Shown: positions 28,798-45,904 of the stretch, piece after piece | How the letters are laid out: each line of letters opens with the position of its first letter | Position numbering within the stretch: position 1 is the first letter of the stretch | From: Candidatus Acidulidesulfobacter diazotrophicus | Lineage (GTDB): Bacteria; SZUA-79; Acidulodesulfobacterales; Acidulodesulfobacteraceae | Direction of reading: 5' to 3' | DNA: 64,000 bases | Assembly: GCA_004195025.1 (NCBI GenBank) | Contig: SGBB01000001.1 | Span: 186,001-250,000 of the forward strand | The notes under the pieces: generated by a model | Database searches by the model: none | What the model saw: only the letters and a program-made list of their open reading frames with translations | What the model was told of the DNA's origin: nothing | Position numbers and translations under genes: made by a program

Positions 28798-29016
28798 GTT
28801 TCATAATCCATTTTAATATTTATAAGTTTACCTTATTTTACCACATCTTTTGCAGTTTTTTTATAACTTTTTCTTATTTTACTTTTAATGTCCGATTTGT
28901 TCGTAAGCCTTGCGTGGAATTGCAACATTTTTTTATACTCTAAGTTAAGGATACTTTATTTTATTTCTTTCTTTATTTTTTATTTTATAATTTACCTTTT
29001 ATGAATTGCCGAATAA

Positions 29017-29413
29017 GTCGCAATCCCTTCAAGCAGGTCAATTATTCCAATATTTTATGCTAACAAGAAATGATTTTTTAGTAGCAGAGTCGCAATCCCT
29101 TCAAGCAGGTCAATTATTCCAATAGATTAATATGTCAATAGAATTTTACAGAGCGGAAATGTCGCAATCCCTTCAAGCAGGTCAATTATTCCAATAGTTG
29201 CCTATCCTGGCAACGGAAACATTAAAGCGCAGTCGCAATCCCTTCAAGCAGGTCAATTATTCCAATATGAAAATTGCCTGCAACAAACCGACGCTTTGGT
29301 TGAGTCGCAATCCCTTCAAGCAGGTCAATTATTCCAATCATAAATGACATTCCTGTATTTATAACGAATATCCTTCCAGTCGCAATCCCTTCAAGCAGGT
29401 CAATTATTCCAAT
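29017..29413 (-). CRISPR. CRISPR array, six 35-base repeats
   Basis: There are six identical repeats at 29017-29051, 29089-29123, 29161-29195, 29232-29266, 29304-29338 and 29379-29413. The spacers are 37, 37, 36, 37 and 40 bases. Read on the minus strand the repeat ends GGGATTGCGAC, so the crRNA 5' tag would be ATTGCGAC, close to the usual type III/I-D tag ATTGAAAC. That orientation puts the leader at 29414-29660, next to cas2, and transcription on the minus strand like the cas genes. No spacer match was seen inside the window by eye. Confidence 0.97.
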
Positions 29414-29660
29414 AGCGACTTGTTCAACAATATGTATTTCAACGATGTCAAAGACCAATTTCGCGAACCTAAGGGGCAAGAAATAAAATTCAAATCCTTT
29501 TCTCTTAAAATCCTTTTCAAATACCTGTTTTTACTGATTCGCAAACCTCTTAATAATAACAAGATATCTGAATCCCCTACTTGCCCTTAAATAACAACTA
29601 CTTGTGATGGTTTTTAACGATTTATATAAAAAATTAAAATATGGTCGGCGAAAATGCAAA

Positions 29661-29942
29661 TTAAATTATATAAAAACTCTTTTCCTCAATATCCACATTA
29701 ACTTTTGGACCATATTTCATTTTTTTCTGCCAATCAGTTTCACATATATCGAAATAAACTATATAATCTTCTTCGGTAATTATTTTATTAACCCTCATTC
29801 TTATTCGCTCTAAAGCCTTATCGTTGGCTTCGCATTCGAAAACCGATTTCTGAACCCTTTCTCCGTATTCATTCATTATCTTTGCAATCTTATTAAGCCT
29901 TTTTTCATTTTTTATATCGTATATTATAAGCCATTTTTTCAT
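29661..29942 (-). CDS. cas2: CRISPR adaptation protein Cas2 (first of two)
   Basis: This is a small ferredoxin-fold protein that bridges Cas1 dimers during spacer acquisition. It has the Cas2 N-terminal pattern WLIIYDIKNEKRLNKIAKIMNEYGERVQKSVFEC with the metal-site Asp of YDI. The length of 93 residues is normal. It is the cas gene nearest the array. It is clearly distinct from the second cas2 (29994-30269), so the pair is not a recent duplication. Confidence 0.93.
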   Translation of the reverse strand: MKKWLIIYDIKNEKRLNKIAKIMNEYGERVQKSVFECEANDKALERIRMRVNKIITEEDYIVYFDICETDWQKKMKYGPKVNVDIEEKSFYII

Positions 29943-29993
29943 ATTAAAACATTTTATAATTAAGATACTATGCGTTAATATATTAAAATAATA

Positions 29994-30269
29994 TCACAAA
30001 ATCTCAAATGTTTCAATTTTTGCCATATCTCCCGTTCCGTCAAACTTAACATTTTTTAAGCAACCGTTGCAAAGAGGATAAACATAAAGTTTATCCATAG
30101 AAACATCGACTACCGCAAGAATATCTTTTAATAATTTATTCAACATATCTCTGGATATTTCGCACTGAAAAAAAGATTTTTGTATCCTTATGCCGTAATT
30201 TTGTAAAACTTTCGCCGTTTTTCTAAGTCTTTTGGGATTAGTTATATCATAACATATCATATAAATCAT
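29994..30269 (-). CDS. cas2: CRISPR adaptation protein Cas2 (second of two)
   Basis: The N-terminus MIYMICYDITNPKRLRKTAK and the motif YGIRIQKSFFQCE are Cas2 hallmarks. The C-terminal half has a distinctive LYVYPLCNGCLKNVKF segment. The length is 91 residues. It lies nine bases after cas1 and 51 bases before the other cas2. A single adaptation module normally needs one Cas2, so one of the two may have another role or may be a remnant of another module. Confidence 0.93.
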   Translation of the reverse strand: MIYMICYDITNPKRLRKTAKVLQNYGIRIQKSFFQCEISRDMLNKLLKDILAVVDVSMDKLYVYPLCNGCLKNVKFDGTGDMAKIETFEIL

Positions 30270-31428: not shown

Positions 31429-31942
31429 TTAATTTAGAACACCGATAATCTTTTTCTGAATTATATCACAATTGGCATCTACCCGCCGCATTATATTTTC
31501 AGATAGGCTATAAGATAATTTTAATAATTTTAAATTCTCTATTTCGCTTCTAAGCGCTTCCGGTAATTTTTCGACCTGTCGTATAATATTCTTTTTAAAC
31601 TGAAAATAAGAATAGCCTATCTCATCGCAAAGTTTTTCCAAGTGTCTTGGGAAAATAACCGAATGTTCGTAATGTCCGCCTATCTTCATCGCCATTTTGT
31701 CCGCTAAATCATAAACCTGAGTGCAAAGAACATCCATGGCCGCTTTCGGGCAAAAGTCCGCCGAAATAAGCCTGGCATACTTTATGTTCAAAGACCCCGC
31801 CTTGCAGCGGCAGGCTAAACGAAAGGCTTTGAGAAGCATCAGGCAAATATTGAAAGCTCATCTTCCCCGACGAATCCTGTTCAAGCACGCCGACAGGCCT
31901 GCCGTTTAATCTTACGGAAAGTTGTTTATTTGTTTGAGCCAT
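31429..31942 (-). pseudogene. hipA: HipA toxin remnant with internal deletion
   Basis: HipA is a serine/threonine kinase toxin of about 440 residues. Here the N-terminal part (31942 to about 31740) reads SVRLNGRPVGVLEQD, FQYLPDASQSLSFSLPL and QAYFGGLLPES. It then joins, in another frame, the extreme C-terminal part MDVLCTQVYDLADKMAMKIGGHY, FPRHLEKLCDEIGYS. The whole central kinase region, including the ATP-binding and catalytic motifs, is missing. The toxin is therefore dead. hipB directly upstream is intact, overlapping by zero bases (hipB ends at 31943). Confidence 0.85.
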
Positions 31943-32479: not shown

Positions 32480-33889
32480 TCAGTTAATCTTTAGTTTTTC
32501 TTTTATCTGTTTTCTAATGTTAATTAAATCAGAAGGTTTTATAATACTGCAATTTAGTAATTTTGCGCGCTTAATAAGGGCTTCTTTTATTTCGTCGGGG
32601 TTATCTTTATCCATTATATTTTCAGAAGCTGTGCTTGTAAGAAAGCTCTTTGTCGTCAAACGTCCAAGGTCAACCTGAAGAGCCGATATTTTGTAAAGTA
32701 TATCCGTTTCCGAATCATGCCCCTGATTTAACGATTTACATTCAACCATGTATAAATTATTATTATAAGCAAAAAGAATGTCAAACTCGTTTTCGGCTTC
32801 CTTGCCTTTTGAAACATTTTTGACTCTTACGTTAATACCGATATCGTTAAAAATACCCTGTTCTTTCAACTCATAGAGTTCATTAAAGCAAAACCTCTCA
32901 AGCCATCCGCCGGTAAGAAACTCAAACTCGTGTTTAGCAATTTCACCATTAATATTTACGTTTAAATTTTTATTTCCGTCAACGTAATGACGGACGGTAA
33001 CCGGTTCGGTTATTTCTACGGCAATATTCACTTTTAAGTTTTTATTTTCGCTTATATAAGGAGCGACCGTAAGGCATTGTTTTAGATAGTGAAAATTAAA
33101 TAATTCTTCTATTAATTTAATAGTAAATTCATGATTTTCGGCGGCAAAAGTACAACGAATATCTATAGGACATGGTTTATTTTTTTTATTAAAAGGAAGG
33201 CTTAATATTTTTAACTCATGAAACAGGGATGCCAAAAAATTCTTTAGGCTATTGTAATTTTGCATTATGAATCTCGAGATATCCGCCGTATGAAACGCAA
33301 GCTTTACCGGTTCATAAGAATTGTTAAATCCATCGTTAAAAATATAGTCGTTTTGAGATATAAGCCGTATACCGTTAGATTCAAGATACTGTATTATATT
33401 CAGCCTTCTAATTACATCACTTGAGGGTTCGCAATTTTTCGAGCCGGTGCAGTTTTCGCTTAAGTCCACAATTTTATTGGAATAAATCGGAATATATACG
33501 ATATTTGTTTTTATTGCAGACCGATTAGCTTTGGATTTAACGGCATTAAATAGCCCTAAAGACATCATTTTAGTGCCGCCGGTAACGTTTGCAATTATTT
33601 CGTCAAACTGGTTGCCGTGTTGATTTTTGTAATCCTTAAACCAGTTTTCTATTTTTTCTTCGACGTCTGCCGGCGATTCGGGATTAACGTTTATAATATA
33701 TAAATTTCCTCTTTCTTCGGAAAAATCAAAATCTTTGGAGATTCTCTTTAATCCGCTGGCTATAAAATCTATCTTCTCACCCATTCTATCGGTAGAAACC
33801 ATAAGAAGAGCATCCGGTTTAAAATAGTCGATGCAAAGAACATTCTGGATGGTTTGTTCACTTACAATCGTAATTAAAAGCTTTTTCAT
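32480..33889 (-). CDS. Card1/Can2-like CARF-nuclease effector
   Basis: This is a type III ancillary nuclease (DUF1887-like) that would be switched on by cyclic oligoadenylate. The N-terminal CARF domain (about residues 1-145) has the ligand-loop motif NVTGGTKMMS at 101-110. The C-terminal part carries the family motif FLTGGWLERF at about 324-333. A PD-(D/E)xK restriction-like core follows, with Asp370 (NEFDIL) and E383-x-K385 (VECKS). At 469 residues it is longer than characterised Card1/Can2 because of a middle region (about 230-320). It overlaps the upstream RAMP gene by four bases (ATGA), so it is co-translated with the complex. The known members use cA4. Confidence 0.83.
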   Translation of the reverse strand: MKKLLITIVSEQTIQNVLCIDYFKPDALLMVSTDRMGEKIDFIASGLKRISKDFDFSEERGNLYIINVNPESPADVEEKIENWFKDYKNQHGNQFDEIIANVTGGTKMMSLGLFNAVKSKANRSAIKTNIVYIPIYSNKIVDLSENCTGSKNCEPSSDVIRRLNIIQYLESNGIRLISQNDYIFNDGFNNSYEPVKLAFHTADISRFIMQNYNSLKNFLASLFHELKILSLPFNKKNKPCPIDIRCTFAAENHEFTIKLIEELFNFHYLKQCLTVAPYISENKNLKVNIAVEITEPVTVRHYVDGNKNLNVNINGEIAKHEFEFLTGGWLERFCFNELYELKEQGIFNDIGINVRVKNVSKGKEAENEFDILFAYNNNLYMVECKSLNQGHDSETDILYKISALQVDLGRLTTKSFLTSTASENIMDKDNPDEIKEALIKRAKLLNCSIIKPSDLINIRKQIKEKLKIN

Positions 33890-36018
33890 ATCAACTTATT
33901 ATCCCTCTCTCCTATTACATCTTGTGGGCTTGGAAGGATGCTCCGTTTAAACTCCTTCAACTCCATATATTTAGTTTTATCATCCGGGGGCTTGCTGTCA
34001 AAATCCAACATTATTTCAAGATCTTTCAACCTATCAACATCCCAGAGGGATTCTTTGCCAGTTTCTCCTATGTTTTTCAGAATATATTTATCAAAGAGAA
34101 CTATATAATCAGAAATGTCCCTTGAGCCAGCTGAATCCTTTGAAGGTTCGGTTTCCCAGCCGGCAAAAAGGGTGTTGTATCTTTTTTTTATATCGTAAAC
34201 GGCAAGCTTCGGCGTTATTTTTACAGAGCCAAATCCAAGCGGCTTGCCCATACCGATTTTATGGCATAGGCCGTTTTTAAGTTTTATGGCAAACATTAAC
34301 GCTCCAAGTTCTATCTCGGATAGGTTCTCGAACCTTATGCGGCCGCTAAATTTAGCGCCTGATTCTATCGGCTTAATTTTAGTGTATTGCGTTTTATGTT
34401 TTTTAATTTCTTCTTCATCCGTTTCTATATATTCTTTGTTTTTTACGCTTTTATGCCAATACATTTTATAGCCCCTGATTTCAGTGGAACCGGGGTCGCT
34501 GTTGTAATCTTTAATTCCAGTAGATCCTTTATCCTGTTTTAAATATAACTGAAAAGACGTCGGCTTTGGCCCGGAAAGTATCTTTGGCGTAATTGCATTG
34601 TTTGCAATTTTATTTTTAGAATTTTCTTCTATATACGCATCTTCAAAAAATACCCTTCCGGCAAAATCTGTTTCGTTTCCGAAAATTGCCGTCGGGATAT
34701 CTATGCTTCCATTTTCATATTTTTGGTTTGAAGTAAAATCTTTAAGTTTATGACTGTAAGCAAGCCTGAACATTCCGGTATGCCCGATAGAAATTACTTT
34801 ATTATCTTTATCGGTTATATAAAAACAGGGAACCTCTTTATTTTCAGGCTTTTCAATCTCTTTAATTAAATCTATTGCTTTATCGCTTCTATTTATATCA
34901 TTTTTATAGTCATCTATTATATCTTCGCCCAACTGAATCGGCTTTTCATCATCGGAAGGCTTGCCTATAATCCAGTCTAAGTGCTTTTTTGACTTAGTAC
35001 CATCCTTATGCTTCCCGCTCACAAAACCGCTGCGAATAAGATATCCCTCGTTCTCTTTGCATTCATCCGCTTTAAGGCAGATATCCGTAACTTTGGCATA
35101 TTTGATATAAACGTCATGATGCTTGTGCTGCTGCTCAACAACGTCCTGCCTATTAAAAGAAATAGGCTTAATAAATTGTTTCTCATTATTATCATGTTTA
35201 ATAATGCCGTCCACGACTTCCCTCTCTACCCTGTAAAACAATGAAGGCATAATCTCGTATTTTTTGTGGCCATTTTTTCTAATACAGCCAGCCTTTAAAT
35301 TCGGATATTCTATAACATTACCGTTAGATTTAATCATTTGCTTCACATAAGCATCCCTTAAATCTTCCGATTTATCCATAAACGACCTGTAATGGAATTT
35401 CCTATCGCCCTCAAAAAAGTTAAACCTGCCGTAACTAACGATTTCAACAATATTCCTTATAAGTCCCCTTAACGAACTGCCGGGTATTCTATGTTTATCT
35501 GCGGGAGAAAAAAAGTCTGGGTTTTTATCGGAACATTCTTTGTCATCTTTTAACTCGCCATTCGTATCCCTAATGTAAATCGGGGTTTTAGTCTCGATTT
35601 CAATATCTATATGCCCAGTTTTAAGCTCTTCATGAAATTTATCGAATGAAGGAACCTCTTGAATATTAGAGTACATTTTAACCACGTTGGCATTGAGCGG
35701 AATAAAATTATAAGGCGCATTTGCGATTAAAATATGAGAATTTTGCAGTTGATTGTTATTGTTGTTTTTACAAGACGACCGCTCTTTCATCTGTGAAGCG
35801 GGTTTGGTATTATTCAATTCACAATCCACTCCATCAATAATAATCCTGACAATGGCGCCATTTTCTCGTTCTAAAACAACTTCTTTCCCATTTGCATCTT
35901 TTGGAATTTTAAATTTTCCAGACACGGGCATGGACTTGCCGTCGTCCAAGGTTACCGTATAGCAAACCCCTTTTTTTATATCTTTACCGATTATTTTTGC
36001 ATTTTCCTTTGAAATCAT
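33886..36018 (-). CDS. Large TIGR03986-type RAMP (Cas7-like)
   Basis: This 710-residue RAMP-superfamily protein is a predicted backbone subunit. It has an N-terminal beta-rich domain of about 70 residues, then a polar linker, then the RAMP core with RIPGSSLRGLIRNIVEIVSYG at about residue 180. The C-terminal part has LGALMFAIKL and the Gly-rich GMGKPLGFGSVKI. The pattern matches the TIGR03986 family found in type III-D loci. By position and size it may be the counterpart of the large insertion-bearing Cas7 of type III-Dv. Long loops around residues 230-440 are the insertions. It is the second-last gene of the operon. Confidence 0.75.
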   Translation of the reverse strand: MISKENAKIIGKDIKKGVCYTVTLDDGKSMPVSGKFKIPKDANGKEVVLERENGAIVRIIIDGVDCELNNTKPASQMKERSSCKNNNNNQLQNSHILIANAPYNFIPLNANVVKMYSNIQEVPSFDKFHEELKTGHIDIEIETKTPIYIRDTNGELKDDKECSDKNPDFFSPADKHRIPGSSLRGLIRNIVEIVSYGRFNFFEGDRKFHYRSFMDKSEDLRDAYVKQMIKSNGNVIEYPNLKAGCIRKNGHKKYEIMPSLFYRVEREVVDGIIKHDNNEKQFIKPISFNRQDVVEQQHKHHDVYIKYAKVTDICLKADECKENEGYLIRSGFVSGKHKDGTKSKKHLDWIIGKPSDDEKPIQLGEDIIDDYKNDINRSDKAIDLIKEIEKPENKEVPCFYITDKDNKVISIGHTGMFRLAYSHKLKDFTSNQKYENGSIDIPTAIFGNETDFAGRVFFEDAYIEENSKNKIANNAITPKILSGPKPTSFQLYLKQDKGSTGIKDYNSDPGSTEIRGYKMYWHKSVKNKEYIETDEEEIKKHKTQYTKIKPIESGAKFSGRIRFENLSEIELGALMFAIKLKNGLCHKIGMGKPLGFGSVKITPKLAVYDIKKRYNTLFAGWETEPSKDSAGSRDISDYIVLFDKYILKNIGETGKESLWDVDRLKDLEIMLDFDSKPPDDKTKYMELKEFKRSILPSPQDVIGERDNKLI

Positions 36019-36052
36019 ATCCTATATCTCCAAAACAATTAAAATTAGACGG

Positions 36053-36691
36053 TCATGACAGTTGAACAAAATCGACAAATCTGGAATCTACGTAAGACGC
36101 CTGACAGCCGTAAGGTCCGCCAAACCCTACATAATTGCAGGTTCTGACGGCAATTCTATTTTTGCCGTTATCTACCGCAAATCCGCCGTTTTTATTTAAA
36201 TCCGGCAAGGTTATTTTTACGCCCCTGTCTTCTTTGACGGTTATAAAGCCATTGATTCTTTTGCCGACCTTCGTTCCAAATAAAACCTGATTTGAATATA
36301 TAGCATACACACCGCCGCCACATTTGTCCTCATGGTTAAACTCGCGGTCGCTTCTGAAGCGCCCCTTATGCATAACGCTGCCGCATTTAATAGTCCGCCA
36401 GACTAACAGTTCTTCGTTTGCGTTAAAAATCCTCATCTTTTGAATATAAACTATATCGGGATTTTGACCTGGCTCGATATTTAATTCTTTCATATTTTCT
36501 TCATCAAATTGAAACGTGGCGTTTTCATGGCCGTTTATATCATGCCTGCCGATTAATATGCCATTGTCCAGATAAAATACGGCAAAAGACGGCTGCGTCA
36601 TATATTCGGCAATTTTGGAAAAATCCTCGAAATTGTCAACCTGATCAATTTTTGAAAATATCTTAACGGCTTTACGCATATCTGAATTCAT
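36053..36691 (-). CDS. csx19: Csx19-like subunit (TIGR03984 type)
   Basis: This 212-residue protein has the Csx19 pattern: a beta-rich N-terminus (FAVFYLDNGILIGRHD), then IVYIQKMRIFNANEELLVWR, then an Arg-rich GRFRSDREF. The C-terminal half (GFITVKEDRGVKITLP, TCNYVGFGGPYG) is beta-rich and may be lineage-specific. Csx19 occurs in type III-D operons and is a structural part of the III-Dv complex. Its presence supports the subtype call. It lies between the double-Cas7 gene and the large RAMP gene. Confidence 0.7.
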   Translation of the reverse strand: MNSDMRKAVKIFSKIDQVDNFEDFSKIAEYMTQPSFAVFYLDNGILIGRHDINGHENATFQFDEENMKELNIEPGQNPDIVYIQKMRIFNANEELLVWRTIKCGSVMHKGRFRSDREFNHEDKCGGGVYAIYSNQVLFGTKVGKRINGFITVKEDRGVKITLPDLNKNGGFAVDNGKNRIAVRTCNYVGFGGPYGCQASYVDSRFVDFVQLS

Positions 36692-36712
36692 AGTTTTAAT
36701 TGTTTAATTCGG

Positions 36713-38197
36713 TTATTTTTTACTATCGGCTATATGTTTATTAATAATTGCTTCATATTTTTTTAATTCGGCTTCCGGCATTTCATTCAAATTATCCACA
36801 AAACCCTGCATTTCTTTTTTGACATCCTCCGGAATCTTATGAATTTCAAAAAATCTAATTTCCTCATTCTGCGGTTTATCGCCGATTTTTCTGTCCGATA
36901 AATTTTTTATAATCGCGCCTTTTCCGATAAATACTCCCCTGCCTATGTTTTTTTCGCCGCCTATCGCAAGATTGCCCGTCCAGAGGTCTTTCAACAGCAG
37001 AAGCATTAAGCCCTTATCCATATCCGTAGCCTTTTTAACTGTAATAACGAAGTTCTTAATATTCGACTCCTTCCCTATGGGAAAAACCGGCATGCTGTCG
37101 AAAAGCGCGGCGTTTATAACGCCGCCAGTAAATCTGTCTATTTTAATCCTGCTCTGAACTTCGCCGCAAACATCCTTGATTTCTACTTCCTCGACTATTA
37201 CCCTTGAAGGAATATCTACTTTTACTCCTTCTCTTACATTGGAGTTCCCAAAAAGGGCATCTATGAATATTTGCGATTTTTCAGATTCTCCCCTGCCATC
37301 CGCAATAGCCCTTATTATTCGCTCCGCCCTTGCCCTTAAGGCGCCTTTGATGGACGTCCCGGAAATCACATATTTTCCGGCAGATTTTAAATGAGAGGCA
37401 TCAGGCGCAGCGGGGTCGTCCGAATAACTTCTTATTATTAGAGAATTTTTAATGGCAAGCGAAACTTTTATGACAAAATCGTTCCCGTTAATATCGATAT
37501 TATTATACCAATTTATTAAGTCGGAATTATCTTTACAGTCTTTTGAGCTGTCCATAAAAGAATCGTTTAGCCATAACAGAATATCCTCTTTTTTATTAAA
37601 GCCTAAGAAAATTATCCTTCCGTCTTTTAATGCCGCCCTTCCAAGACCGGAGTTTGTTTTTGCTCCAAGGTTAATGCCGCCCTTTAATATTTTTAAAATG
37701 ATGCCGCCAACATTTTCAATCTCTTTAATAGAAACATCCCGGAGATCGGAAAATAAATCTATTTCTATTTTCAGCTTAAATTTAGCGCCTGCCCCGACAA
37801 CTTCATAGTCGAACTTCGAATTATTTTCGGCCATTCCGGTTTTTCCGCTTATTTTTACGCCGTCTCTCACTTCTATCGAATAACTATCTTCTGCAAGTGT
37901 TAAATCTGAACATGATAATATGGAAGCCGTTGTTTTTTCGTCGTCATAATCCCCGAATATCGAGCTAAATTGCGCATCGCTTATAAATTTTTCTACGCCA
38001 GAATTGAGGATTTCGTGAAATCTTTGTTTTAAAACTCCGACAAACGAAGTCGCAGGGATAAACGGAGCGCCTTTCTTGTCTTTTATAACATCGATATCGG
38101 TATTGTAATCTTCTCCGCAGCCTATAAGCAAAGGAGACGAGAGTTCTATATTGCCGCCTATAATAAGTTTTCCTAAAAGATGCTTATTCCTTTCCAT
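36713..38197 (-). CDS. Double Cas7 fusion (Cas7-2x type)
   Basis: Two RAMP/Cas7 units lie in one 494-residue chain. Unit 1 (about 1-205) has SPLLIGCGEDYNTDIDVIKD, PFIPATSFVGVLKQRF and the Gly-rich GAKTNSGLGRAAL. Unit 2 (about 235-440) has PDASHLKSAGKYVISGTSIKGALRARAERI, DRFTGGVINAALFD and LAIGGEKNIGRGVF. Each unit keeps an Asp at the place used for target-RNA cutting in Csm3/Cas7 (TDIDV; APDASHL). A double Cas7 is a hallmark of type III-Dv. Its end overlaps nothing, but its start overlaps the stop of csx10 by 14 bases. Confidence 0.85.
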   Translation of the reverse strand: MERNKHLLGKLIIGGNIELSSPLLIGCGEDYNTDIDVIKDKKGAPFIPATSFVGVLKQRFHEILNSGVEKFISDAQFSSIFGDYDDEKTTASILSCSDLTLAEDSYSIEVRDGVKISGKTGMAENNSKFDYEVVGAGAKFKLKIEIDLFSDLRDVSIKEIENVGGIILKILKGGINLGAKTNSGLGRAALKDGRIIFLGFNKKEDILLWLNDSFMDSSKDCKDNSDLINWYNNIDINGNDFVIKVSLAIKNSLIIRSYSDDPAAPDASHLKSAGKYVISGTSIKGALRARAERIIRAIADGRGESEKSQIFIDALFGNSNVREGVKVDIPSRVIVEEVEIKDVCGEVQSRIKIDRFTGGVINAALFDSMPVFPIGKESNIKNFVITVKKATDMDKGLMLLLLKDLWTGNLAIGGEKNIGRGVFIGKGAIIKNLSDRKIGDKPQNEEIRFFEIHKIPEDVKKEMQGFVDNLNEMPEAELKKYEAIINKHIADSKK

Positions 38198-39815
38198 TTT
38201 TACCGCCCCCAGTCTTTTTCTTATTCTTTCTCTTTAACTGGGTAAAAAAATTAACCAGATATATTTTTTGAAACATTATCAAACAATCTTCCATTAAGAT
38301 ATCGTTAATATTTAAGAAGTTAAATTTTTTCATAAACTTGGATATACCGTATTTTTCATCTTCATATATTTTTTTTATCTTTTCATCAATATGCTTCCCG
38401 TCTTTAAATTTTTCCAAAAAATCGTATAGGGATTCCTCGCCGGTGTAAGCATCCTTAATCTTATCTTTAGCGGTCTTCCTGAGTTTTTCCAATTTATCGT
38501 TAAAATTCCTTAGATTTCTCATACCTTTGGCAAACTCTCTCAATTTACCGGAAAGGGCGCCGGATATAATGCCATTTTTATCGCTTCCCTGAGCTTTTTC
38601 TATTGCCGAAATTACTAGTTCGTCTTTTATAACGTTTATTATTTTATCTTTAATAACATTTTTAGCAATATTTGTGGCGTTAACACATTTATCGCGCTTT
38701 AAAGTGCCGCCGATTTCATCGTTTTTTATTTCTAAGTCTTTTTTAATGTTTAAATTAAAAGAAACCGTGCCGAATCCTTCATTCGTTCTTTCTCCTATGC
38801 CGTAAATCTCAAAATCTCTAAAATTTTCAGGAAGCGTATCGTATTTTATTAAAAATGAAGAACCTGCCAAAAATACGTTTTCCATCGGCTTTCTGGCAGC
38901 CCATTTCCCTACAAAATTTTCGGCCGTGCCTTTTCTTATCGCCGACTTAATTATCTTGACATCAGAGCCTAAAGCCTTTTCTAAATCGCTTATATCGGCC
39001 GTTGAAAAACCTTTGTCGTTATAAACTATAGCGTCGGACAACATAGTCATAATGCATACCTTATCGTTTTCGAGCATAAAATATTTATCATTATCCGTAT
39101 TCCCCGCAATATCCTCCATGCCGGATATGCGCAATTCGGCATATCCATATTGCGCGGTTCTCGACCTTCCGAGATATGCTTTCAAAATCTTTAATTTACC
39201 GTCACCTGAAGGTTCGCTTATTTCGCTTATGAAATTCAAAAAACTTCTCAGGTTTTCTTCGTTTCCTATAATGTAAGATATAAAGGTCTGAAACGGGCAT
39301 ATCCATTCGTAGTTAAAGATTTCATTGTCTTTTTTATCGTTATTAATTGCGCCGTGAAAGCTCACTCCGGTATCTACGCTCACGGTTTTAATGAAACCGT
39401 CTTTTAAAATGCGGCCAAACTTGCGGACAGGCTGGAATTTATTTTTCATTTTATCGCTGCCTGATTTCCCATCTTCGCAGGATTGCATAAAATACTCTAT
39501 ACATTGGCCGCTTTCGTCGTGTTTTTTCTTCTGTATGGACAACGGCAATTGGTATGAAGGCAAAACGCCGCCATCGGATTCTATTCCTTTAAAAGCATTA
39601 CTGAATATAAGACCTCCTCGTAGAAAAAATTCGTAAAATAAATTATCGGCAGATTTATTTTTTTTAATATATTTGTTGGCAAATAATCCAATAATAGAGG
39701 TTCCGGTTAAATACAGCTTTGTTTCAGCCATATTCTGGTCGCCTGGAACGTCGGTCATTACCACAGGGGATTTAAGACTAATCGTTAATTTAACTCGTTT
39801 ATTGTACTCTGCCAT
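38184..39815 (-). CDS. csx10: Csx10 (Cas5-like) with long helical C-terminus
   Basis: This is a Cas5-type subunit that would cap the crRNA 5' tag. Csx10 features are the LYLTGTSIIGLFANKYI helix, SYQLPLSIQKKK, the signature AYLGRSRTAQYGYAEL and the Gly-rich GIGERTNEGFGTV. The last 160 or so residues are lysine-rich and helical and might supply the missing Cas11 small subunit. No separate cas11 is present. The ATG at 39815 is preferred because the protein then starts at MAEYNKRVKL and follows the cas7 stop. An in-frame ATG at 39884 would add 23 residues and overlap cas7. Confidence 0.82.
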   Translation of the reverse strand: MAEYNKRVKLTISLKSPVVMTDVPGDQNMAETKLYLTGTSIIGLFANKYIKKNKSADNLFYEFFLRGGLIFSNAFKGIESDGGVLPSYQLPLSIQKKKHDESGQCIEYFMQSCEDGKSGSDKMKNKFQPVRKFGRILKDGFIKTVSVDTGVSFHGAINNDKKDNEIFNYEWICPFQTFISYIIGNEENLRSFLNFISEISEPSGDGKLKILKAYLGRSRTAQYGYAELRISGMEDIAGNTDNDKYFMLENDKVCIMTMLSDAIVYNDKGFSTADISDLEKALGSDVKIIKSAIRKGTAENFVGKWAARKPMENVFLAGSSFLIKYDTLPENFRDFEIYGIGERTNEGFGTVSFNLNIKKDLEIKNDEIGGTLKRDKCVNATNIAKNVIKDKIINVIKDELVISAIEKAQGSDKNGIISGALSGKLREFAKGMRNLRNFNDKLEKLRKTAKDKIKDAYTGEESLYDFLEKFKDGKHIDEKIKKIYEDEKYGISKFMKKFNFLNINDILMEDCLIMFQKIYLVNFFTQLKRKNKKKTGGGKNGKE

Positions 39816-39843
39816 TTTATGATTCGGTCCGCCAATTAAGTTA

Positions 39844-40509
39844 TTATTCAAAGGGTTTAAATCGTAATATATCGCCGTTTTCATCTTTTATATAAATTTT
39901 AACCTCGCCGAAACCCCTGTTTCTCTTAGAGCCTATTTTTTTAGTAGCTGCACAAATATAAAGCAACTGGTCTATATATTTTTCATTGATTAAAAACGAA
40001 TTGCCAAAAACCATATTTTTATCAAGAACCCTAGTTGTTCTTAGCGAATGCCTTTTTGTTTTTCCAAGTTCCTGGTCAATGGATGTTTGCATCCTTACAT
40101 TCGTAAAATATGAAATAACGTCATCTTTAGAAATATTAAATACGTTAAATCCGGCGGTATTTTCCCCTCTCCCCGAAAAAAGCGAACCGAAAAATTCTCT
40201 GGTTTTTTCGTAATCCTCAATATAAAGATTTGGAACGATAAAATTCGCGGCAGATTGCCAATCGTTTCTGCCTTGTTTACCAAAAATATCATCTATATTA
40301 ATTTCTAATTTAATATTTGCTCTTTTAAAAATATTGGATAAAATCTCGCCGGATTCCCTTAGAACACCTTTTAGTCTTTTTGCCGGAATATATGGCAGGC
40401 CGACATCGTCAAAAACAATATCTGTATCGATGATAGCCCCGTAACCCCTATCCGAAGCTATCGATGCATCGGATAGCAGTTCCATAGAAAGCTGGTATTG
40501 TTTAGCCAT
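39844..40509 (-). CDS. cas7: Single Cas7-type RAMP subunit
   Basis: This 221-residue backbone subunit of the Csm3/Cmr4 kind has SDASIASDRGYGAIIDTDIVFDD followed by GLPYIPAKRLKGVLRESGEIL, and the Gly-rich KKIGSKRNRGFGEVKI near the end. The Asp of IDTDIV lies where Csm3 has its target-cleavage residue. The FFGSLFSGRGEN and SLRTTRVLD segments form the thumb region. It overlaps cas10 by eight bases and is immediately followed by csx10. Confidence 0.85.
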   Translation of the reverse strand: MAKQYQLSMELLSDASIASDRGYGAIIDTDIVFDDVGLPYIPAKRLKGVLRESGEILSNIFKRANIKLEINIDDIFGKQGRNDWQSAANFIVPNLYIEDYEKTREFFGSLFSGRGENTAGFNVFNISKDDVISYFTNVRMQTSIDQELGKTKRHSLRTTRVLDKNMVFGNSFLINEKYIDQLLYICAATKKIGSKRNRGFGEVKIYIKDENGDILRFKPFE

Positions 40510-42001
40510 TTAATCTTCCTCTTTTTATTATGTAGTCCGGTAAAATTTCGATAAGCTCTATAAGGTCTAAATAAGGCGTTCTTTGTCCATTATAAAAATC
40601 GTCCGAATAATCTGTTCCCAAGATAGATTTGGGTATCAAAAAACTTTTTTTATTTAAATCATCCGAACTTGCTTCAGTGCTTGCCCTCATCGACATATGA
40701 TGTAAAAAATTTTTTCTCTCAGACGTAGTCTTGCTTAAAATCGCCCTTAACTCTTTTATTTTGGATTCGGCCAATTCACTCATATCATGCAATGGTTCGA
40801 TTAGTTTTTCCAGTTCGTCAATATTATAAGGACGCATATACATTTTGCCATAGTTATTTTCATAATGATTTTGTCTTATTTCGCTAAGTTCTCCAGAAAT
40901 TCCGCTATAAAACATCTGAAAATCTATATAAGAACCTTCATTTTTATCCTTTTTCATCTTGTCTTTTGCATTGGTTAATAATTCTTCGGCTATTTTCTGG
41001 ATTCTGTAAATAGGATATTTTGCATGCGCTATTGCAACACCGGCACATGCGGATATCGGCTCCCCATCGGAAACTTTTTTATTTTCGAAAAATTTCAAAA
41101 ATTTATATGCAAAATAAACGCCCATACTTCCATGGCAAATAAAACCAACATCGTCGCCGCCTAAAACAATAGGGCGAAGAGGAAGTATCCTTTTACCTTT
41201 TTCAGACTCTATGTTGATTTCTTTTTCTATCTCGCTGAATTCGCCGTCTATTATTTTTAATAAATCATCAAAAGATTCTTCTACTGCTTTCCTTAGCGTA
41301 ATCGAAAGTTTTTTCTTTTTCTCTAATGTCTCCTGACTCATAAACCTGTCAGACATGCTGTTGCCATCGATAGCCACAAAGGCTATGTGGGAATCTTCGT
41401 TTTTCTTATGCCCTAATTTATCCAGCTCGTCGGTAAAACAATACTTATCGCCTAAATTATTTTTCTTTAAAATATCCTGCATTTTATTGTTGCCGGCTTT
41501 GGCATTTTTTAATTTCGAAAAAGAAGAATATGAAATATAAGAAGTATCTTCGTATACTTCCGCAGATAAGCCCGTTCTGTTGCATTCAGCCGTGACACCG
41601 TGCGAAGGAATATTTGATATGGGTATAAAAATATTTTTTGATTCTTGAAGTTTCCTATAAGTTTTATCCAGGTTGCTTCCGTCAAATTCGCAATCCATGC
41701 CAATACCCAGATCTATTCCGGGATAGCATTCCAGTACATTGAGGGTAAATTCTTTTAGCGTTTCGGCAACAGTATCCTTATCGTCGTCAAAAACAAGTAT
41801 AGCATTTCCGCCGGCCTCATAGCCGTTTTCCAATGCTTTTTCGAAACAGATATTATATTTTCCGTTATTTTTATATTTATACTGGTTAAAAAGTCCTTCT
41901 ATAATTGACGATGCACCTATATTTTCTTTAAGTTTGTTTGAGGCATAAATATATTTTTGTATCGACATTACATCTATGATTACGCTTATTTGTTTACCCA
42001 T
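40502..42001 (-). CDS. cas10: Cas10 without HD domain, cyclase motif intact
   Basis: This is the large subunit and signal synthase of the type III complex. The protein starts directly with the first palm domain (SIQKYIYASNKLKENIGASSII at about 13-33). There is no N-terminal HD nuclease. The second palm has IDGNSMSDRF at 211-220 and the catalytic GGDD at 281-284. The C-terminal helical domain follows. At 499 residues it is short for Cas10. Loss of HD with a retained GGDD is typical of type III-D. It should make cyclic oligoadenylate but not cut DNA. Confidence 0.92.
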   Translation of the reverse strand: MGKQISVIIDVMSIQKYIYASNKLKENIGASSIIEGLFNQYKYKNNGKYNICFEKALENGYEAGGNAILVFDDDKDTVAETLKEFTLNVLECYPGIDLGIGMDCEFDGSNLDKTYRKLQESKNIFIPISNIPSHGVTAECNRTGLSAEVYEDTSYISYSSFSKLKNAKAGNNKMQDILKKNNLGDKYCFTDELDKLGHKKNEDSHIAFVAIDGNSMSDRFMSQETLEKKKKLSITLRKAVEESFDDLLKIIDGEFSEIEKEINIESEKGKRILPLRPIVLGGDDVGFICHGSMGVYFAYKFLKFFENKKVSDGEPISACAGVAIAHAKYPIYRIQKIAEELLTNAKDKMKKDKNEGSYIDFQMFYSGISGELSEIRQNHYENNYGKMYMRPYNIDELEKLIEPLHDMSELAESKIKELRAILSKTTSERKNFLHHMSMRASTEASSDDLNKKSFLIPKSILGTDYSDDFYNGQRTPYLDLIELIEILPDYIIKRGRLNG

Positions 42002-42965
42002 TTGCGTTCACCTCGACCATTCCCAGTCCGAAGCTGACGTTTTTCCCGATGCCGAAAAGTTCCGCCGCTTTAAGAAGCGATAGTTCCGCTTCGGAAAACA
42101 GCCCCTTCACCGTTGCAGTCCCGACCAAGCCGCCCATCTTCATGCTCTGTTTCTGCCTTGCCGAATACCTTGAGTAATCAGTCCATTTTAAATCTGCGTT
42201 AAATTCCTTATCTTTCGTTATGGAATCTACAAAATCGCCGTCAAACCCTTTATGGCTGCCATTATCCCTGCCAACGGAATTTTCGTCCCCGCCGCCGAAA
42301 AAATCGCTAAGAATATTAATTCTGCGCACCGCGGCATGGATAAGGTCTTTATATGTTATGAGCGATAAATATTTTCCGTTATGCTGGATTCTAACCGGCG
42401 TTAAAAAATTAATCTTGACGGTTTTTAACCCGCCCCCCTCCGAAGCGTTTAAATCATGTGCGCCGACAGGGTTTATATCCCAGACTTCCGGCTCGGCGTT
42501 CTTGCAGGAATAATTTGCCTTGTCCATAATGGGTACGCCCCGGCAGATTACATCGTCGATATCGAACCTGAACCGTTCTTTTAGTATTCCTGATTTCCCG
42601 ATATTAATCATGGTCAGAAGTATGTAAGGAAAATACTTTACGCCCATTCCAATTAAGACTACATCGAGCATAAGCCTGTCAACGGCCGTGCCTGCGGCAG
42701 CGCCGGAATACACTATATAAGGATGCGTCGCTTTATTTCTTCCCTCGAGAATCCCGTTGTTTTTCTCTATAGGGGTTTCGAATACCGAAGAGTAAATACA
42801 GGAAGCCTTTAAGATGCAGTCAGGACATTCACAGTTTTTGAGAACGCAGGTAATTTTTCTTAATTGAAATCCTATGTTGTTGCGGAATATAAAAGATGGC
42901 AGGGAGCGGAATGCAACCCTTTTCTCAAAAACTAAGCTAAATGAATATCTGTTGTATTCGAGCAT
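41994..42965 (-). CDS. cas6: Cas6 crRNA-processing endoribonuclease
   Basis: It cleaves the pre-crRNA in each repeat. Two RAMP folds are suggested. The N-terminal part has a four-Cys cluster (CVLKNCECPDCILKASC), which is unusual for Cas6 and reminiscent of the Cas6-like PF10040 group. The C-terminal part has the family motif MKMGGLVGTATVKG followed by LLKAAELFGIGKNVSFGLGMVEV, the Gly-rich RNA-binding loop. The length of 323 residues is at the upper end. It overlaps cas10 by eight bases and is second in the operon. Confidence 0.85.
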   Translation of the reverse strand: MLEYNRYSFSLVFEKRVAFRSLPSFIFRNNIGFQLRKITCVLKNCECPDCILKASCIYSSVFETPIEKNNGILEGRNKATHPYIVYSGAAAGTAVDRLMLDVVLIGMGVKYFPYILLTMINIGKSGILKERFRFDIDDVICRGVPIMDKANYSCKNAEPEVWDINPVGAHDLNASEGGGLKTVKINFLTPVRIQHNGKYLSLITYKDLIHAAVRRINILSDFFGGGDENSVGRDNGSHKGFDGDFVDSITKDKEFNADLKWTDYSRYSARQKQSMKMGGLVGTATVKGLFSEAELSLLKAAELFGIGKNVSFGLGMVEVNANG

Positions 42966-43014
42966 TTTAAGGCCTATAAATTTATAATCAGATTATATTT
43001 TATAGTTGCAGCTC

Positions 43015-43329
43015 CTAATGTTTTGCGACTATTACCTCTAACATTTCGTTTTTAAACCTGACTTCGTGGAAATTATGAACAACCACATGAAAGGCGACTA
43101 AATAAACGGGAATTGCGGTCGCGCCGGTTAATACTACCGAGTCTTTATCCTTAATATCCGCGCTGCCGTCTTTAAATCTCCGCCTTATATTCTTAACATG
43201 CTCCGAAATGTTATCTCCGATAAGGTTCAGGTTGTCCTGATTCAATTCGAACGACTTCCTGCCCCCAAAGCTTTCGATTTTTATTCCGAGGTATATCTCC
43301 TTGTTTTCTAAGCTTAAATCTAGTTCCAT
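43015..43329 (-). CDS. Small Csx3-like candidate ring nuclease
   Basis: This is a 104-residue protein and the first gene of the effector operon. The second half (SVVLTGATAIPVYLVAF, then VVVHNF, ending EVIVAKH) has the layout of Csx3 (Crn3): a strand with a Gly loop, P-x-x-L, a helix, a His-containing segment and a C-terminal VxVxxH. The first half is more variable. Csx3 degrades cA4 and would damp the Card1-like and membrane CARF effectors. Conservation is weak and the catalytic residues cannot be assigned by eye, so other ring-nuclease families remain possible. Confidence 0.4.
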   Translation of the reverse strand: MELDLSLENKEIYLGIKIESFGGRKSFELNQDNLNLIGDNISEHVKNIRRRFKDGSADIKDKDSVVLTGATAIPVYLVAFHVVVHNFHEVRFKNEMLEVIVAKH

Positions 43330-43615: not shown

Positions 43616-45101
43616 CCTAACTTCTCTCCCTTTTTTATACACTACATCCAAGTAGTTTTAAAATAACCCCCTGTTCTTTAGTAAGCGCAACGGTTTTAGA
43701 CCAGTTAAAATTTTCTTTGATGGACGATAGCTCTACTTTATAGACCGGGGATAGTTTTTCTAATGCGTCTGTTGCCGATATGCCGGAGGGAGCCAATTTG
43801 TTTTTTATGTAAGAAAGTAGGGAATAGGCTATATAACAGATTTTTACGTGAGCTTTAATATGACTCATTCTGTATTTTCTTATAGGGTTAAGATTAATAG
43901 AGCTTTTTAACTCTTTAAATGCTTTTTCCACGATATCTTTTTCGTAATATATTTTTATAACTTCAATGTTTGAAAGTTTCGTCGTATGGTAAATCAGTGA
44001 ATATCCCATATATCTTGCTTCATTAGAATCGAATCTGCCGGATTCTATCGCATGGTTTCTTTTGATAAGCTCTATTTCAGGATTATAAACGGCAATAAGT
44101 TTACCTTCCATAAAATCAAAATCCTTTGCATAGACTTTAGTGTTTTTTAGTTTTATAAGACAGTCTGGTGTATAAATCTTTTCTCTGTCTATATTGAGAT
44201 AATTTTTTTTAATCTTTGCGTTAAGCCTTAAACCTGTTATTATTTTTTGATTTATATTTCTTAAATCCGATATTGTTTCGTAGCTTATCATGCCTCTATC
44301 TACTACGATGAAATTAAACTTTTTTAAACGGGTTTCTGATAAAAGATCCTGAAATATATTCATATTGTTTATATTGCCTTCATATGTTTTATGCATTATA
44401 GGAAAGCCTTCTTCCTTGGTAACCGCCAAAGCTATCTGAAGCAGTTTGTCGTATTTTCCGTCTTTGCCTTTTCTTGCTTTCCAGAAAGCTTCGCTTCCCG
44501 AGAAATAGGTGTCGGTTATATCGAGTATTAATGCATTTTTTTCTTTGCGGGTTGACAATTTTTCGAATATCTTTTTTTCTATTTCTTCGAAATCTAATTC
44601 TTCAAGTTCATCTAATGCTTTATATAAATCTTTGTCTATTAAATTTTTAATGCCTAAAAGTTCTTTCAGGGTGGTTTGTTCTAAATATTCAGGAAGTCTG
44701 TAAATAGATTTGCGGCAGATAATATGCGTATAAACTAAAAGTAAAATATATTTTGCATAGTTGCCTAAAACTTCCGTTAATCCGAGTTCTTTAGAAATAT
44801 CATGGAGTATTTTATAGTCCAGATACTTTTTTACGGATTTTATTTCTATGCCGCTTGAATCCACTCTTCTTACAACTTCTCCTGCCACCTCTTTGCCGAT
44901 ATATCTTATTACCTTCTGTTTTACTTTTTTACCTTCGCGGTAATTTTCGACCTCGGCAAGATAAACGGCATTTTTCTTTTTTATTTTTCTTATAAAAGAC
45001 ATAGTGTATATATTATACACTACACAAATAAAATGTCAATAGAAAAATAGTTAAAATAAAGGATTTTTTATGTGGTGTATAAAAAAGTGGGAGAAGTTAG
45101 G
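43616..45101 (-). mobile_element. IS1634-like insertion sequence
   Basis: This is a 1486-base element with related inverted ends. The left end reads CCTAACTTCTCTCCC and continues TTTTTTATACACTACA; the right end, read inward, is CCTAACTTCTCCCAC and continues TTTTTTATACACCACA. It holds one transposase gene covering almost all of its length. The ends match at most positions over 31 bases. I could not define a target duplication with certainty. It lies just upstream of the cas operon control region, with both genes on the minus strand. Confidence 0.85.
43635..45002 (-). CDS. IS1634-family DDE transposase
   Basis: This transposase of about 455 residues has the fold of the IS4/IS1634 group. The catalytic acidic residues fit LILDITDTYFSG (first Asp), FIVVDRGMIS (second Asp) and the YYEKDIVEKAFKELKS motif, which is the Y-(2)-R/K-(3)-E(6)-K type element with Glu. 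The frame is intact, so it may still be active. ATG at 45002 is preferred. A longer in-frame start lies at 45020. Confidence 0.85.
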   Translation of the reverse strand: MSFIRKIKKKNAVYLAEVENYREGKKVKQKVIRYIGKEVAGEVVRRVDSSGIEIKSVKKYLDYKILHDISKELGLTEVLGNYAKYILLLVYTHIICRKSIYRLPEYLEQTTLKELLGIKNLIDKDLYKALDELEELDFEEIEKKIFEKLSTRKEKNALILDITDTYFSGSEAFWKARKGKDGKYDKLLQIALAVTKEEGFPIMHKTYEGNINNMNIFQDLLSETRLKKFNFIVVDRGMISYETISDLRNINQKIITGLRLNAKIKKNYLNIDREKIYTPDCLIKLKNTKVYAKDFDFMEGKLIAVYNPEIELIKRNHAIESGRFDSNEARYMGYSLIYHTTKLSNIEVIKIYYEKDIVEKAFKELKSSINLNPIRKYRMSHIKAHVKICYIAYSLLSYIKNKLAPSGISATDALEKLSPVYKVELSSIKENFNWSKTVALTKEQGVILKLLGCSV

Positions 45102-45207
45102 TATATGACAAAATTTGATTACCATAAAATTTCACATTTATTTTAATATAATATAATTATACACAGATATTGTTGCATATTTGTATAAAATATGTAAAAA
45201 TAATACT

Positions 45208-45480
45208 ATGGATTTTGAATGGGACGAGTCTAAAAGCAACGCAAATAAAAGTAAACACGGTATAGATTTTGAGACCGCAAAAAATATATTTTTAGACGAA
45301 AACCGTGTTGAAATTATGGCCCCGTATCCGATAGAGAATAGATTTATCAATATAGGAAAACTTAACGGAAAATTATGGACGGTTATTCATACAATCAGGG
45401 GAGATGCCGTAAGAATTATCTCCGCAAGACGTTCAAGAAAAAAAGAGGTAAAATTATATGAAAAAAAAGACGACAGCTAA
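45208..45480 (+). CDS. brnT: BrnT-family toxin
   Basis: This is a RelE-like ribonuclease toxin. It has the BrnT pattern MDFEWDESKSNANKSKHGIDFETAKNIF, then RFINIGKLNGKLWTVIHT and RIISARRSRKKEVKLYE. The ATG at 45208 gives 90 residues, the usual size; upstream non-ATG starts are unlikely. It overlaps brnA by 23 bases. It lies inside the island, next to the right-hand attachment copy. Confidence 0.9.
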   Translation: MDFEWDESKSNANKSKHGIDFETAKNIFLDENRVEIMAPYPIENRFINIGKLNGKLWTVIHTIRGDAVRIISARRSRKKEVKLYEKKDDS

Positions 45481-45823: not shown

Positions 45824-45904
45824 GGACTCTGACTCCCATTACGGAGGTTCGAATCCTTCTCTCCAGCCATTCAAAAACCGTAGTAAATAAGCCGTTCCGG
45901 CGAT
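45824..45904. repeat. Second attachment copy (3' half of tRNA-Gln)
   Basis: This copy repeats 26709-26790: the anticodon stem-loop, T arm, acceptor 3' strand, CCA and downstream flank. One base is missing in the acceptor C-run, with a C-to-T change beside it and a few flank changes. The 5' half of the tRNA is missing, so it is not a functional gene. It marks the right border of the 19-kb CRISPR segment. Confidence 0.9.

What the first reader, a model, noticed from the sequence alone, without database searches (positions are those of the whole stretch)
32480..43329. Type III-D-like complex resembling an unfused counterpart of III-Dv
Gene order (minus strand) is Csx3-like, cas6, HD-less cas10, single cas7, tailed csx10, double cas7, csx19, large TIGR03986 RAMP, Card1/Can2-like. 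In III-Dv of Synechocystis, established work describes a Cas7-Cas5-Cas11 fusion, a Cas7-2x, an insertion-bearing Cas7 and Csx19. Here a free Cas7 is immediately followed by a Cas5-like protein with a helical tail, and then by a true double Cas7 and Csx19. This may record a step between ordinary III-D and the fused III-Dv and III-E forms.
Basis: partly seen in the sequence, partly recalled or inferred. Interest (0 to 1): 0.85.

Follow-up and report, generated by a model that had tools for sequence, protein, structure and literature searches.

The report
Ordinary split-gene type III-D CRISPR operon
This is a complete, widespread kind of RNA-cutting bacterial immune system whose parts match the solved Synechocystis III-Dv machine except that one protein pair is not fused; it is not itself a special missing link, but comparing its relatives suggests that the fusion arose more than once.

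Summary
In detail: csx3-like, cas6, HD-less cas10 (GGDD), single cas7, tailed csx10, double cas7, csx19, TIGR03986 and Card1 lie in that order on the minus strand. The csx10 tail is a Cas11 domain: modelled alone it matches residues 619-780 of the Synechocystis III-Dv Cas7-Cas5-Cas11 chain (Z 10.3, next row 4.0). The double Cas7 is an old pair shared with III-Dv. The three RNA-cutting aspartates are present.

As a grade, free Cas7, tailed Csx10 and double Cas7 stand between the fully separate Saccharolobus III-D and fused III-Dv. But this is the common form: of 63 readable scan loci 55 are split, 8 fused. The window lies deep among split systems; grouping it with III-Dv is rejected (AU p 2.9e-9). 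One origin for all Cas7-Cas5 fusions is also rejected (p 3.4e-9; p 1e-4 without the fused genes): at least two, probably three. A new member of a known kind, whose relatives point to repeated fusion.

The parts
43015..43329 (-). csx3-like gene, 104 aa; candidate cyclic-oligoadenylate ring nuclease
   Evidence: PADLOC Csx3 E 1.3e-4; 28% identity to the annotated Csx3 at L011:1481-1786, Nostoc sp. ATCC 53789; weak
41994..42965 (-). cas6, 323 aa; crRNA processing
   Evidence: PADLOC Cas6 E 1.4e-67, Pfam CRISPR_Cas6 E 4e-17
40502..42001 (-). cas10, 499 aa, no HD domain found; cyclase
   Evidence: PADLOC Cas10d E 2e-103; PDB 8s9t_C E 3e-15; no HD family listed
41150..41161 (-). GGDD motif of Cas10 (residues 281-284)
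   Evidence: residue number (the end coordinate printed there is one codon too far; recomputed by hand); motif present in 73 of 82 Cas10 rows held
39844..40509 (-). single free cas7, 221 aa
   Evidence: Pfam RAMPs E 2e-14; PADLOC PDLC02091 residues 1-195 E 2.5e-45
40426..40428 (-). Cas7 D28, counterpart of Synechocystis D26 (cleavage site)
   Evidence: phmmer alignment; Asp in 84 of 88 rows, 3 gaps, 1 Glu
38184..39884 (-). csx10 (Cas5) with C-terminal Cas11 domain, 566 aa; start probably M24 at 39815
   Evidence: PADLOC Cas5_IIId E 1.3e-47; AlphaFold2 model pLDDT 83.6; 8s9t_A Z 31.6 over 25-559
38211..38672 (-). Cas11-like helical tail of csx10 (residues 405-558, eight helices)
   Evidence: tail modelled alone pLDDT 92.6; 8s9t_A 619-780, Z 10.3, rmsd 3.1, 144 residues; next row 4.0
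36713..38197 (-). double cas7 (Cas7-2x), 494 aa
   Evidence: PADLOC Cas7_IIId E 6e-110; PDB 8s9t_D Cas7-2x E 5e-24
38096..38098 (-). Cas7-2x unit 1 D34, counterpart of Synechocystis D33
   Evidence: alignments; coordinates
37400..37402 (-). Cas7-2x unit 2 D266, counterpart of Synechocystis D246
   Evidence: alignment of 35 double Cas7 proteins; coordinates
36053..36691 (-). csx19, 212 aa
   Evidence: TIGR03984 E 3.7e-24
33886..36018 (-). TIGR03986 Cas7 with insertion (Cas7-insertion), 710 aa
   Evidence: TIGR03986 E 2.8e-131; PDB Cas7-11 E 1e-19 and 8s9t_E E 2.6e-13
32480..33889 (-). card1/can2-like CARF nuclease, 469 aa
   Evidence: Pfam CARF_Card1 E 1e-18, Card1_endonuc E 7e-23; homologue (32% identity) next to TIGR03986 in the same-genus locus L108
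30279..31340 (-). cas1, 353 aa
   Evidence: Pfam Cas_Cas1 E 1.8e-75
29994..30269 (-). cas2, first copy
   Evidence: Pfam CRISPR_Cas2 E 9.8e-21
29661..29942 (-). cas2, second copy
   Evidence: Pfam CRISPR_Cas2 E 3.2e-22
29010..29417 (-). CRISPR array, 6 repeats of about 35 nt, 5 spacers; read on the minus strand the repeat ends GGGATTGCGAC
   Evidence: strand inferred from the repeat end and the cas gene strand

Best explanation
A complete, ordinary type III-D CRISPR-Cas operon of the split kind: free Cas7, Cas5 already joined to Cas11 (tailed Csx10), and Cas7-2x. Cas6 cuts the array transcript; one Cas10, one Cas7, one Csx10-Cas11, one Cas7-2x, one Csx19 and one Cas7-insertion assemble on one crRNA (about 303 kDa of protein if each is present once, csx10 counted from M24). 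Target RNA pairs with the crRNA and is cut at three places six nucleotides apart by the aspartates D28 of Cas7 and D34 and D266 of Cas7-2x. Pairing also turns on the Cas10 palm domain, which makes cyclic oligoadenylate; this activates the Card1-like nuclease, and the Csx3-like protein may break the messenger down. Shown here: the genes, folds, catalytic residues, order and relationships. Inferred from the solved Synechocystis complex and from what is known of Card1 and Csx3 (recalled): assembly, one copy of each subunit, cutting pattern and signalling. In evolution this gene set is the usual form from which the Cas7-Cas5 fusion was made at least twice, probably three times; the window's own branch did not lead to III-Dv.
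For: Gene families and order. Four effector subunits find the III-Dv chains by sequence: Cas10 8s9t_C E 3e-15, Cas7-2x 8s9t_D E 5e-24, Csx10 8s9t_A E 2e-5, TIGR03986 8s9t_E E 3e-13; the single Cas7 only weakly (E 0.02); Csx19 was not searched against PDB. Catalytic Asp columns. Cas11 tail. Same order in a second locus of the genome, in three cyanobacterial plasmids, and split genes in 55 of 63 readable scan loci. Trees.
Against: No experiment. Csx3 assignment is weak. Four of five spacers were tested and had no exact match in the viral collection, so no target is known. Fusion origins: with the fused genes left out, one origin for the non-cyanobacterial fusions is not rejected (p 0.139), so three origins are the best tree, not a proof; the TIGR03986-only tree is noisier (7 changes for the fused label); in the Cas10 tree the strongly supported branches alone force only one change, and its rooting rests on a single, very distant III-B outgroup.
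Confidence: 0.88

Rival explanations
1. The locus is a true transitional form on the line to III-Dv (and then III-E): its branch split off just before Cas7 fused to Cas5.
For: The same subunits in the same order as III-Dv with only the Cas7-Cas5 fusion missing; both halves match one fused-length PADLOC model; its TIGR03986 scores better against III-E than against III-Dv.
Against: Window plus III-Dv as one clade is rejected, p 2.9e-9; the wider window group plus III-Dv p 4.4e-7. Nearest kin are split systems of its own family, Cloacimonadota, Nitrospirota and Brocadiaceae. The nearest split kin of III-Dv in the Cas10 tree are Photobacterium and Persicobacter plasmid systems (89/94, long branches).
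Confidence: 0.04
2. The split is secondary: a fused Cas7-Cas5-Cas11 gene was broken in this lineage by a frameshift, since the two reading frames overlap by 41 nt out of frame.
For: Overlap of 41 nt in another frame.
Against: The overlap part of csx10 is disordered in the model; the same-genus locus L108 has a 47-nt gap and L009 and L110 a 4-nt overlap; the 8 rows of the window's supported group are all split.
Confidence: 0.03
3. All Cas7-Cas5 fusions go back to one event and the split systems between them are fissions.
For: Fused rows cluster (3-4 changes against about 11-14 for shuffled labels); the two non-cyanobacterial fused groups could be one clade (p 0.139).
Against: AU test p 3.4e-9 on five subunits and p 1e-4 on the three subunits outside the fusion, with LG+G4 and a long III-Dv branch; other type III systems keep Cas7 and Cas5 as separate genes (established knowledge; Saccharolobus III-D, PMC9945777, passages).
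Confidence: 0.08

Closest known systems
Ordinary bacterial III-D operons, e.g. plasmids of Nostoc sp. ATCC 53789, Anabaena cylindrica, Planktothrix agardhii (L011-L013)
   Same: Identical effector gene order cas10, cas7, tailed csx10, double cas7, csx19, TIGR03986; a DUF1887 CARF gene (the Card1 kind, recalled) beside it in Nostoc and Anabaena
   Different: Another branch of III-D; TIGR03986 identity 31-34%
Synechocystis PCC 6803 III-Dv (pSYSA, L122; PDB 8s9t)
   Same: Each of the six effector parts has a counterpart, including the Cas11 domain and the three catalytic aspartates
   Different: There cas7, cas5 and cas11 are one 791-aa protein; different clade; accessory proteins Csm6 and Csx1 (PMC11026444, passage)
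Saccharolobus solfataricus III-D (SsoCsm, PDB 8bmw)
   Same: Cas10, Cas5, Cas7 and Cas11 parts; chain M of 8bmw matches the Cas5 part of csx10, Z 14.2 over 31-380
   Different: There cas11 is a free gene and there are five cas7-like genes (PMC9945777, passages); here Cas11 is on Csx10 and two Cas7 are joined
III-E Cas7-11 (gRAMP)
   Same: TIGR03986 matches the last Cas7 domain (E 1e-19)
   Different: III-E is a single protein without Cas10 and Cas5 (PMC11026444, passage); in the TIGR03986 tree it groups with III-Dv, not with the window

Membership tests
Type III-D | csx10 (a Cas5 variant) present | tested here: met
   PADLOC Cas5_IIId E 1.3e-47; NCBIfam TIGR02674 (Csx10) E 9e-12 but 45 bits, below its curated cut-off of 177
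Type III-D | csx19 often present | tested here: met
   TIGR03984 85 bits, over its cut-off of 35
Type III-D | TIGR03986 Cas7 with insertion | tested here: met
   440 bits, over its cut-off of 161
Type III-D | HD-less Cas10 of the III-D family with GGDD | tested here: met
   PADLOC Cas10d E 2e-103, no HD family listed, GGDD at 281-284
Type III-Dv | Cas7-Cas5-Cas11 in one protein | tested here: not met
   cas7 and csx10-cas11 are separate genes here, in L009 and in L108
Type III-Dv | Cas11 domain on Cas5 | tested here: met
Type III-Dv | Cas7-2x with two catalytic Asp | tested here: met
Type III-Dv | falls in the III-Dv clade | tested here: not met
   AU p 2.9e-9 against window, L108 and III-Dv as one clade
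Type III-E | single Cas7-11 protein, no Cas10 or Cas5 | tested here: not met
   separate genes, Cas10 and Cas5 present
Cas11 (small subunit) for the csx10 tail | fold of a solved Cas11 domain | tested here: met
   III-Dv Cas11 domain 8s9t_A 619-780, Z 10.3, rmsd 3.1, 144 aligned, next row 4.0. Against: Foldseek alone gave E 0.59; no sequence match to PDB
III-D effector | one copy of each subunit per complex, three cuts 6 nt apart | not testable with these tools
   needs purified complex; reported for Synechocystis in PMC11026444 (passages and section 9)
Csx3 ring nuclease | Csx3 family membership | tested here: inconclusive
   PADLOC E 1.3e-4; PDB none

The most novel reading that the evidence does not exclude
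Joining Cas7 to Cas5-Cas11 is a repeated, easy step rather than the single event that made III-Dv: on a shared chassis of tailed Csx10 plus double Cas7, where the two genes touch (a 4-nt overlap in 30 of 73 loci called split by script, zero gap in the same frame in 4 of 73), it happened separately in cyanobacterial III-Dv, in a mixed group (Chitinophagales, Thermosyntropha, Parcubacteria, Hydrogenobaculum, Desulfuromonadales) and in Gelria/Syntrophomonadaceae. Systems defined only by this fusion would then not be one natural group, and fused and split kin would allow direct tests of what the fusion changes.
Probability: 0.8. Interest if true: 0.5.

Novelty: new member of a known kind. Interest (0 to 1): 0.33.

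Why it matters
It helps to fix the order of events in III-D: the paired Cas7 and the Cas5-Cas11 union are shared by split III-D and III-Dv, while the Cas7-Cas5 fusion came later and more than once. It also means that fused III-D systems cannot all be read as one rung on a single ladder to III-E. The window itself is a useful split counterpart for testing whether a free Cas7 changes copy number or crRNA length, since III-Dv is reported to have one copy of each subunit and a fixed crRNA length (PMC11026444, passages and Discussion).

Tried and rejected
Frameshift or sequencing error at the cas7/csx10 junction: rejected. Window as closest kin of III-Dv: rejected. Window as kin of III-E: phmmer gave its TIGR03986 a better score to III-E (1e-19) than to III-Dv (2.6e-13), and the better of two III-E proteins scored best against the profile of the window's wider group (136 bits against 104.5 for III-Dv), but the tree puts III-E with III-Dv (93/86, long branches); left open, not claimed. 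One of the two III-E proteins was used only as its longest stop-free stretch, 1262 aa, because its frame holds a TAG. Catalytic base of the Cas11 domain (Synechocystis R678): the aligned column holds R in the window but R in only 16 of 53 rows; no conclusion. Spacer targets: 4 of 5 spacers, cores of 23-25 nt, exact, no match in IMG/VR. Tail by sequence against PDB: only chance matches; Foldseek on the tail: best E 0.59; no free Cas11 (Csm2, Cmr5) was among the rows, which says nothing against one. L066 was first counted as split: its junction is a run of N, so it is counted as unreadable; L083 and L102 (overlapping frames from a first-start rule) and L100 (csx10 in two pieces) are counted as split. 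Of 11 plasmid records with TIGR03986 I opened 7. First alignment for the genome scan was too diverse. That repeated Cas7-Cas5 fusion is not in print I cannot say: I only did not see it in the listings and in the passages read; the 2020 classification paper is not held and supplements were not read. The 2025 classification (PMC12669027, passages) already describes III-I as an independent fusion product of another III-D variant.
Full report
WHAT IS THERE. Profile searches name them with good margins except csx3. Downstream in the same direction are cas1, two tandem cas2 genes and an array of six repeats and five spacers. Upstream lies a DDE transposase gene. The window is C1:186001-250000 of a 2.46-Mb draft genome that also holds a second III-D operon of the same layout on contig 14 with a large array (L009: 51 repeat copies found) and a III-B (Cmr) operon 6 to 8 kb before the window (L010).

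SUBUNITS AGAINST III-Dv. By sequence the window proteins find the Synechocystis III-Dv chains: Cas10 (E 3e-15), Cas7-2x (5e-24), Cas7-insertion (3e-13), Csx10 to Cas7-Cas5-Cas11 (2e-5), and the single Cas7 weakly to the N-terminus of Cas7-Cas5-Cas11 (0.02). Csx19 was named by its NCBIfam model only. PADLOC's model PDLC02091 (709 positions) is covered almost end to end by the two window genes. The three catalytic aspartates named in PMC11026444 (D26, D33, D246; section 9 read) align with D28 of the window Cas7 and D34 and D266 of its Cas7-2x; at the D28 column 84 of 88 Cas7 rows hold Asp, 3 a gap and 1 Glu. GGDD is present here and in 73 of 82 Cas10 rows.

THE TAIL IS CAS11. AlphaFold2 on csx10 with 39 rows gave pLDDT 83.6; residues 1-22 are disordered and 405-558 are eight helices. 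The full model matches 8s9t_A over 25-559, Z 31.6, rmsd 9.5, 475 residues. Modelled alone, the tail has pLDDT 92.6 and matches the Cas11 part of that chain (619-780), Z 10.3, rmsd 3.1, 144 residues, with the next row at 4.0. Against this: Foldseek alone gives E 0.59, no sequence match was found, Z 10 is not by itself high for helical folds (note), and no free Cas11 appeared among the rows. I take the specific match, at the right place of the right protein, as decisive.

THE DOUBLE CAS7 IS OLD. I cut 35 double Cas7 proteins at one alignment column, left out six beforehand (L109, whose gene is in two pieces, and the divergent L015, L016, L017, L060, L104) and built a tree of the 58 halves of the other 29, III-Dv included: all first halves and all second halves are separate, 100/100, in 100% of 200 bootstrap trees. 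The same two Cas7 lineages in the same order thus precede the parting of III-Dv and ordinary III-D; that they were joined once is the simplest reading.

HOW COMMON THE LAYOUT IS. A scan of one genome per species with TIGR03986 found 433 relatives; the best 80 were kept as 79 loci. I left out L029 and L038, which are the contigs already held as L108 and L110. Of the 77 examined, the script called 56 split, 8 fused and 13 unreadable; L066, called split, has a run of N at the junction, so 55, 8 and 14. The scan favours sequences near the window, so the ratio is not a census. Of 11 plasmid records with a match I opened seven: five are split, one (Nostoc edaphicum) is fused, and one (Tistrella) did not match my csx10 profile and was not scored. 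Synechocystis pSYSA came through a second plasmid search. Among 194 genomes of the phylum of G030 (a cyanobacterium), 24 matched PDLC02089; I took 12 of these 24 regions, 5 fused and 7 split.

PHYLOGENY. Five subunits joined (86 loci, 2203 columns, FastTree) place the window with its same-genus sister inside a supported all-split set of 8, then 25. With L066 in as split, the fused state needs 4 changes. In an IQ-TREE tree of 37 of these loci, chosen by hand (14 fused, 23 split; L066, the near-copy L159, the long branches L015 and L016 and further split loci left out), it needs 3, all forced by supported branches, and one clade of all fused systems is rejected, p 3.4e-9. Leaving out the cas7 and csx10 columns it still needs 3; one clade is rejected, p 1e-4; III-Dv plus the mixed fused group is rejected, p 1e-5; but the two non-cyanobacterial fused groups as one clade are not rejected, p 0.139 (these last two groups were named after the first tree was seen). 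So two origins are firm and three are the best estimate. Window plus L108 plus III-Dv as one clade is rejected, p 2.9e-9, and the wider window group plus III-Dv, p 4.4e-7. A Cas10 tree of 39 rows rooted on the genome's own III-B Cas10 (one very long outgroup branch) has split systems at the base and three separate fused groups, 3-4 changes over bootstrap trees, though its strongly supported branches alone force only one change. The TIGR03986 tree is noisier (7 changes for the fused label) and joins III-E to cyanobacterial III-Dv, 93/86, with long branches. All these trees use LG+G4 or FastTree, not a mixture model, and many rows depart in composition.

HOW FUSION COULD HAPPEN. In the 73 loci called split (L066 counted) cas7 and csx10 overlap by exactly 4 nt in 30 and abut with zero gap in the same frame in 4 (L154, L155, L037, L043). 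I read two of these: in L154 and L155 the stop TAA is followed at once by ATG. L037 and L043 lie in the group beside the fused Gelria/Syntrophomonadaceae pair. Loss of one stop codon would fuse such a pair. This is inference.

WHAT IS KNOWN. Saccharolobus III-D has a free cas11 gene and five cas7-like genes (PMC9945777, passages). III-Dv has Cas7-Cas5-Cas11 and Cas7-2x and is described as keeping the III-D1 gene organisation with subunits fused (PMC11026444: outline, passages, sections 9 and 13). A Csx10 variant of type III, and RAMP duplications and fusions in type III, were noted in 2011 (PMC3150331, passages). III-E is said to derive from III-D2, and III-I independently from another III-D variant (PMC12669027, passages; PMC8730458, passages). 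The window system is thus a known kind. I did not see it stated that the Cas7-Cas5 fusion itself arose repeatedly, but the key classification paper of 2020 was not held.

VERDICT. Observation confirmed; interpretation partly supported: an unfused counterpart of III-Dv in anatomy, an ordinary III-D system by descent. Interest 0.33 for the window; the comparative result behind it deserves more.

Noticed in passing
window 29661-30269: Two cas2 genes in tandem behind one cas1, both with good Cas2 matches.
   Followed up: no
L009 (G000 contig 14, 12000-30000): Second III-D operon of the same split layout in the same genome, with its own CARF nuclease and a long array (51 copies found); I recognised no cas6 among the ORFs listed, but ran no cas6 profile there (the window cas6 had no tblastn hit in it).
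   Followed up: partly
L010 (G000 contig 1, 166001-186000): A III-B (Cmr) operon with a 955-aa Cas10 and a Csx1-type CARF-HEPN gene 6 to 8 kb before the window, so the genome holds at least three type III systems.
   Followed up: partly
L031 7669-12262 and L040 7621-12328: Brocadiaceae III-D loci carry two TIGR03986 genes in tandem; the Kuenenia hertensis genome also has a III-E gRAMP whose frame holds one TAG.
   Followed up: partly
L154 4852-4857 and L155 3640-3645: cas7 stop TAA directly followed by csx10 ATG in the same frame, one codon from a fusion.
   Followed up: yes
L015, L016: Photobacterium and Persicobacter plasmid systems, split, sit next to III-Dv in the Cas10 tree (89/94) and in the FastTree, but on long branches; possible nearest split kin of III-Dv.
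   Followed up: partly
window 31429-31839: 136-aa ORF between cas1 and card1 without a PADLOC or Pfam match and without a tblastn hit in the loci held.
   Followed up: partly
window 43635-45480: DDE transposase gene upstream of csx3 and a BrnT-type toxin gene beyond it; the csx3-like protein ends where the Nostoc Csx3 runs on for another 11 residues.
   Followed up: no
window 28045-28797: Fic/DOC family gene next to the array.
   Followed up: no
window 45863-45896 and 47656-47689: A 34-nt direct repeat, 94% identical, on both sides of a radical-SAM/SPASM gene and a 91-aa ORF; could mark a moved piece.
   Followed up: no
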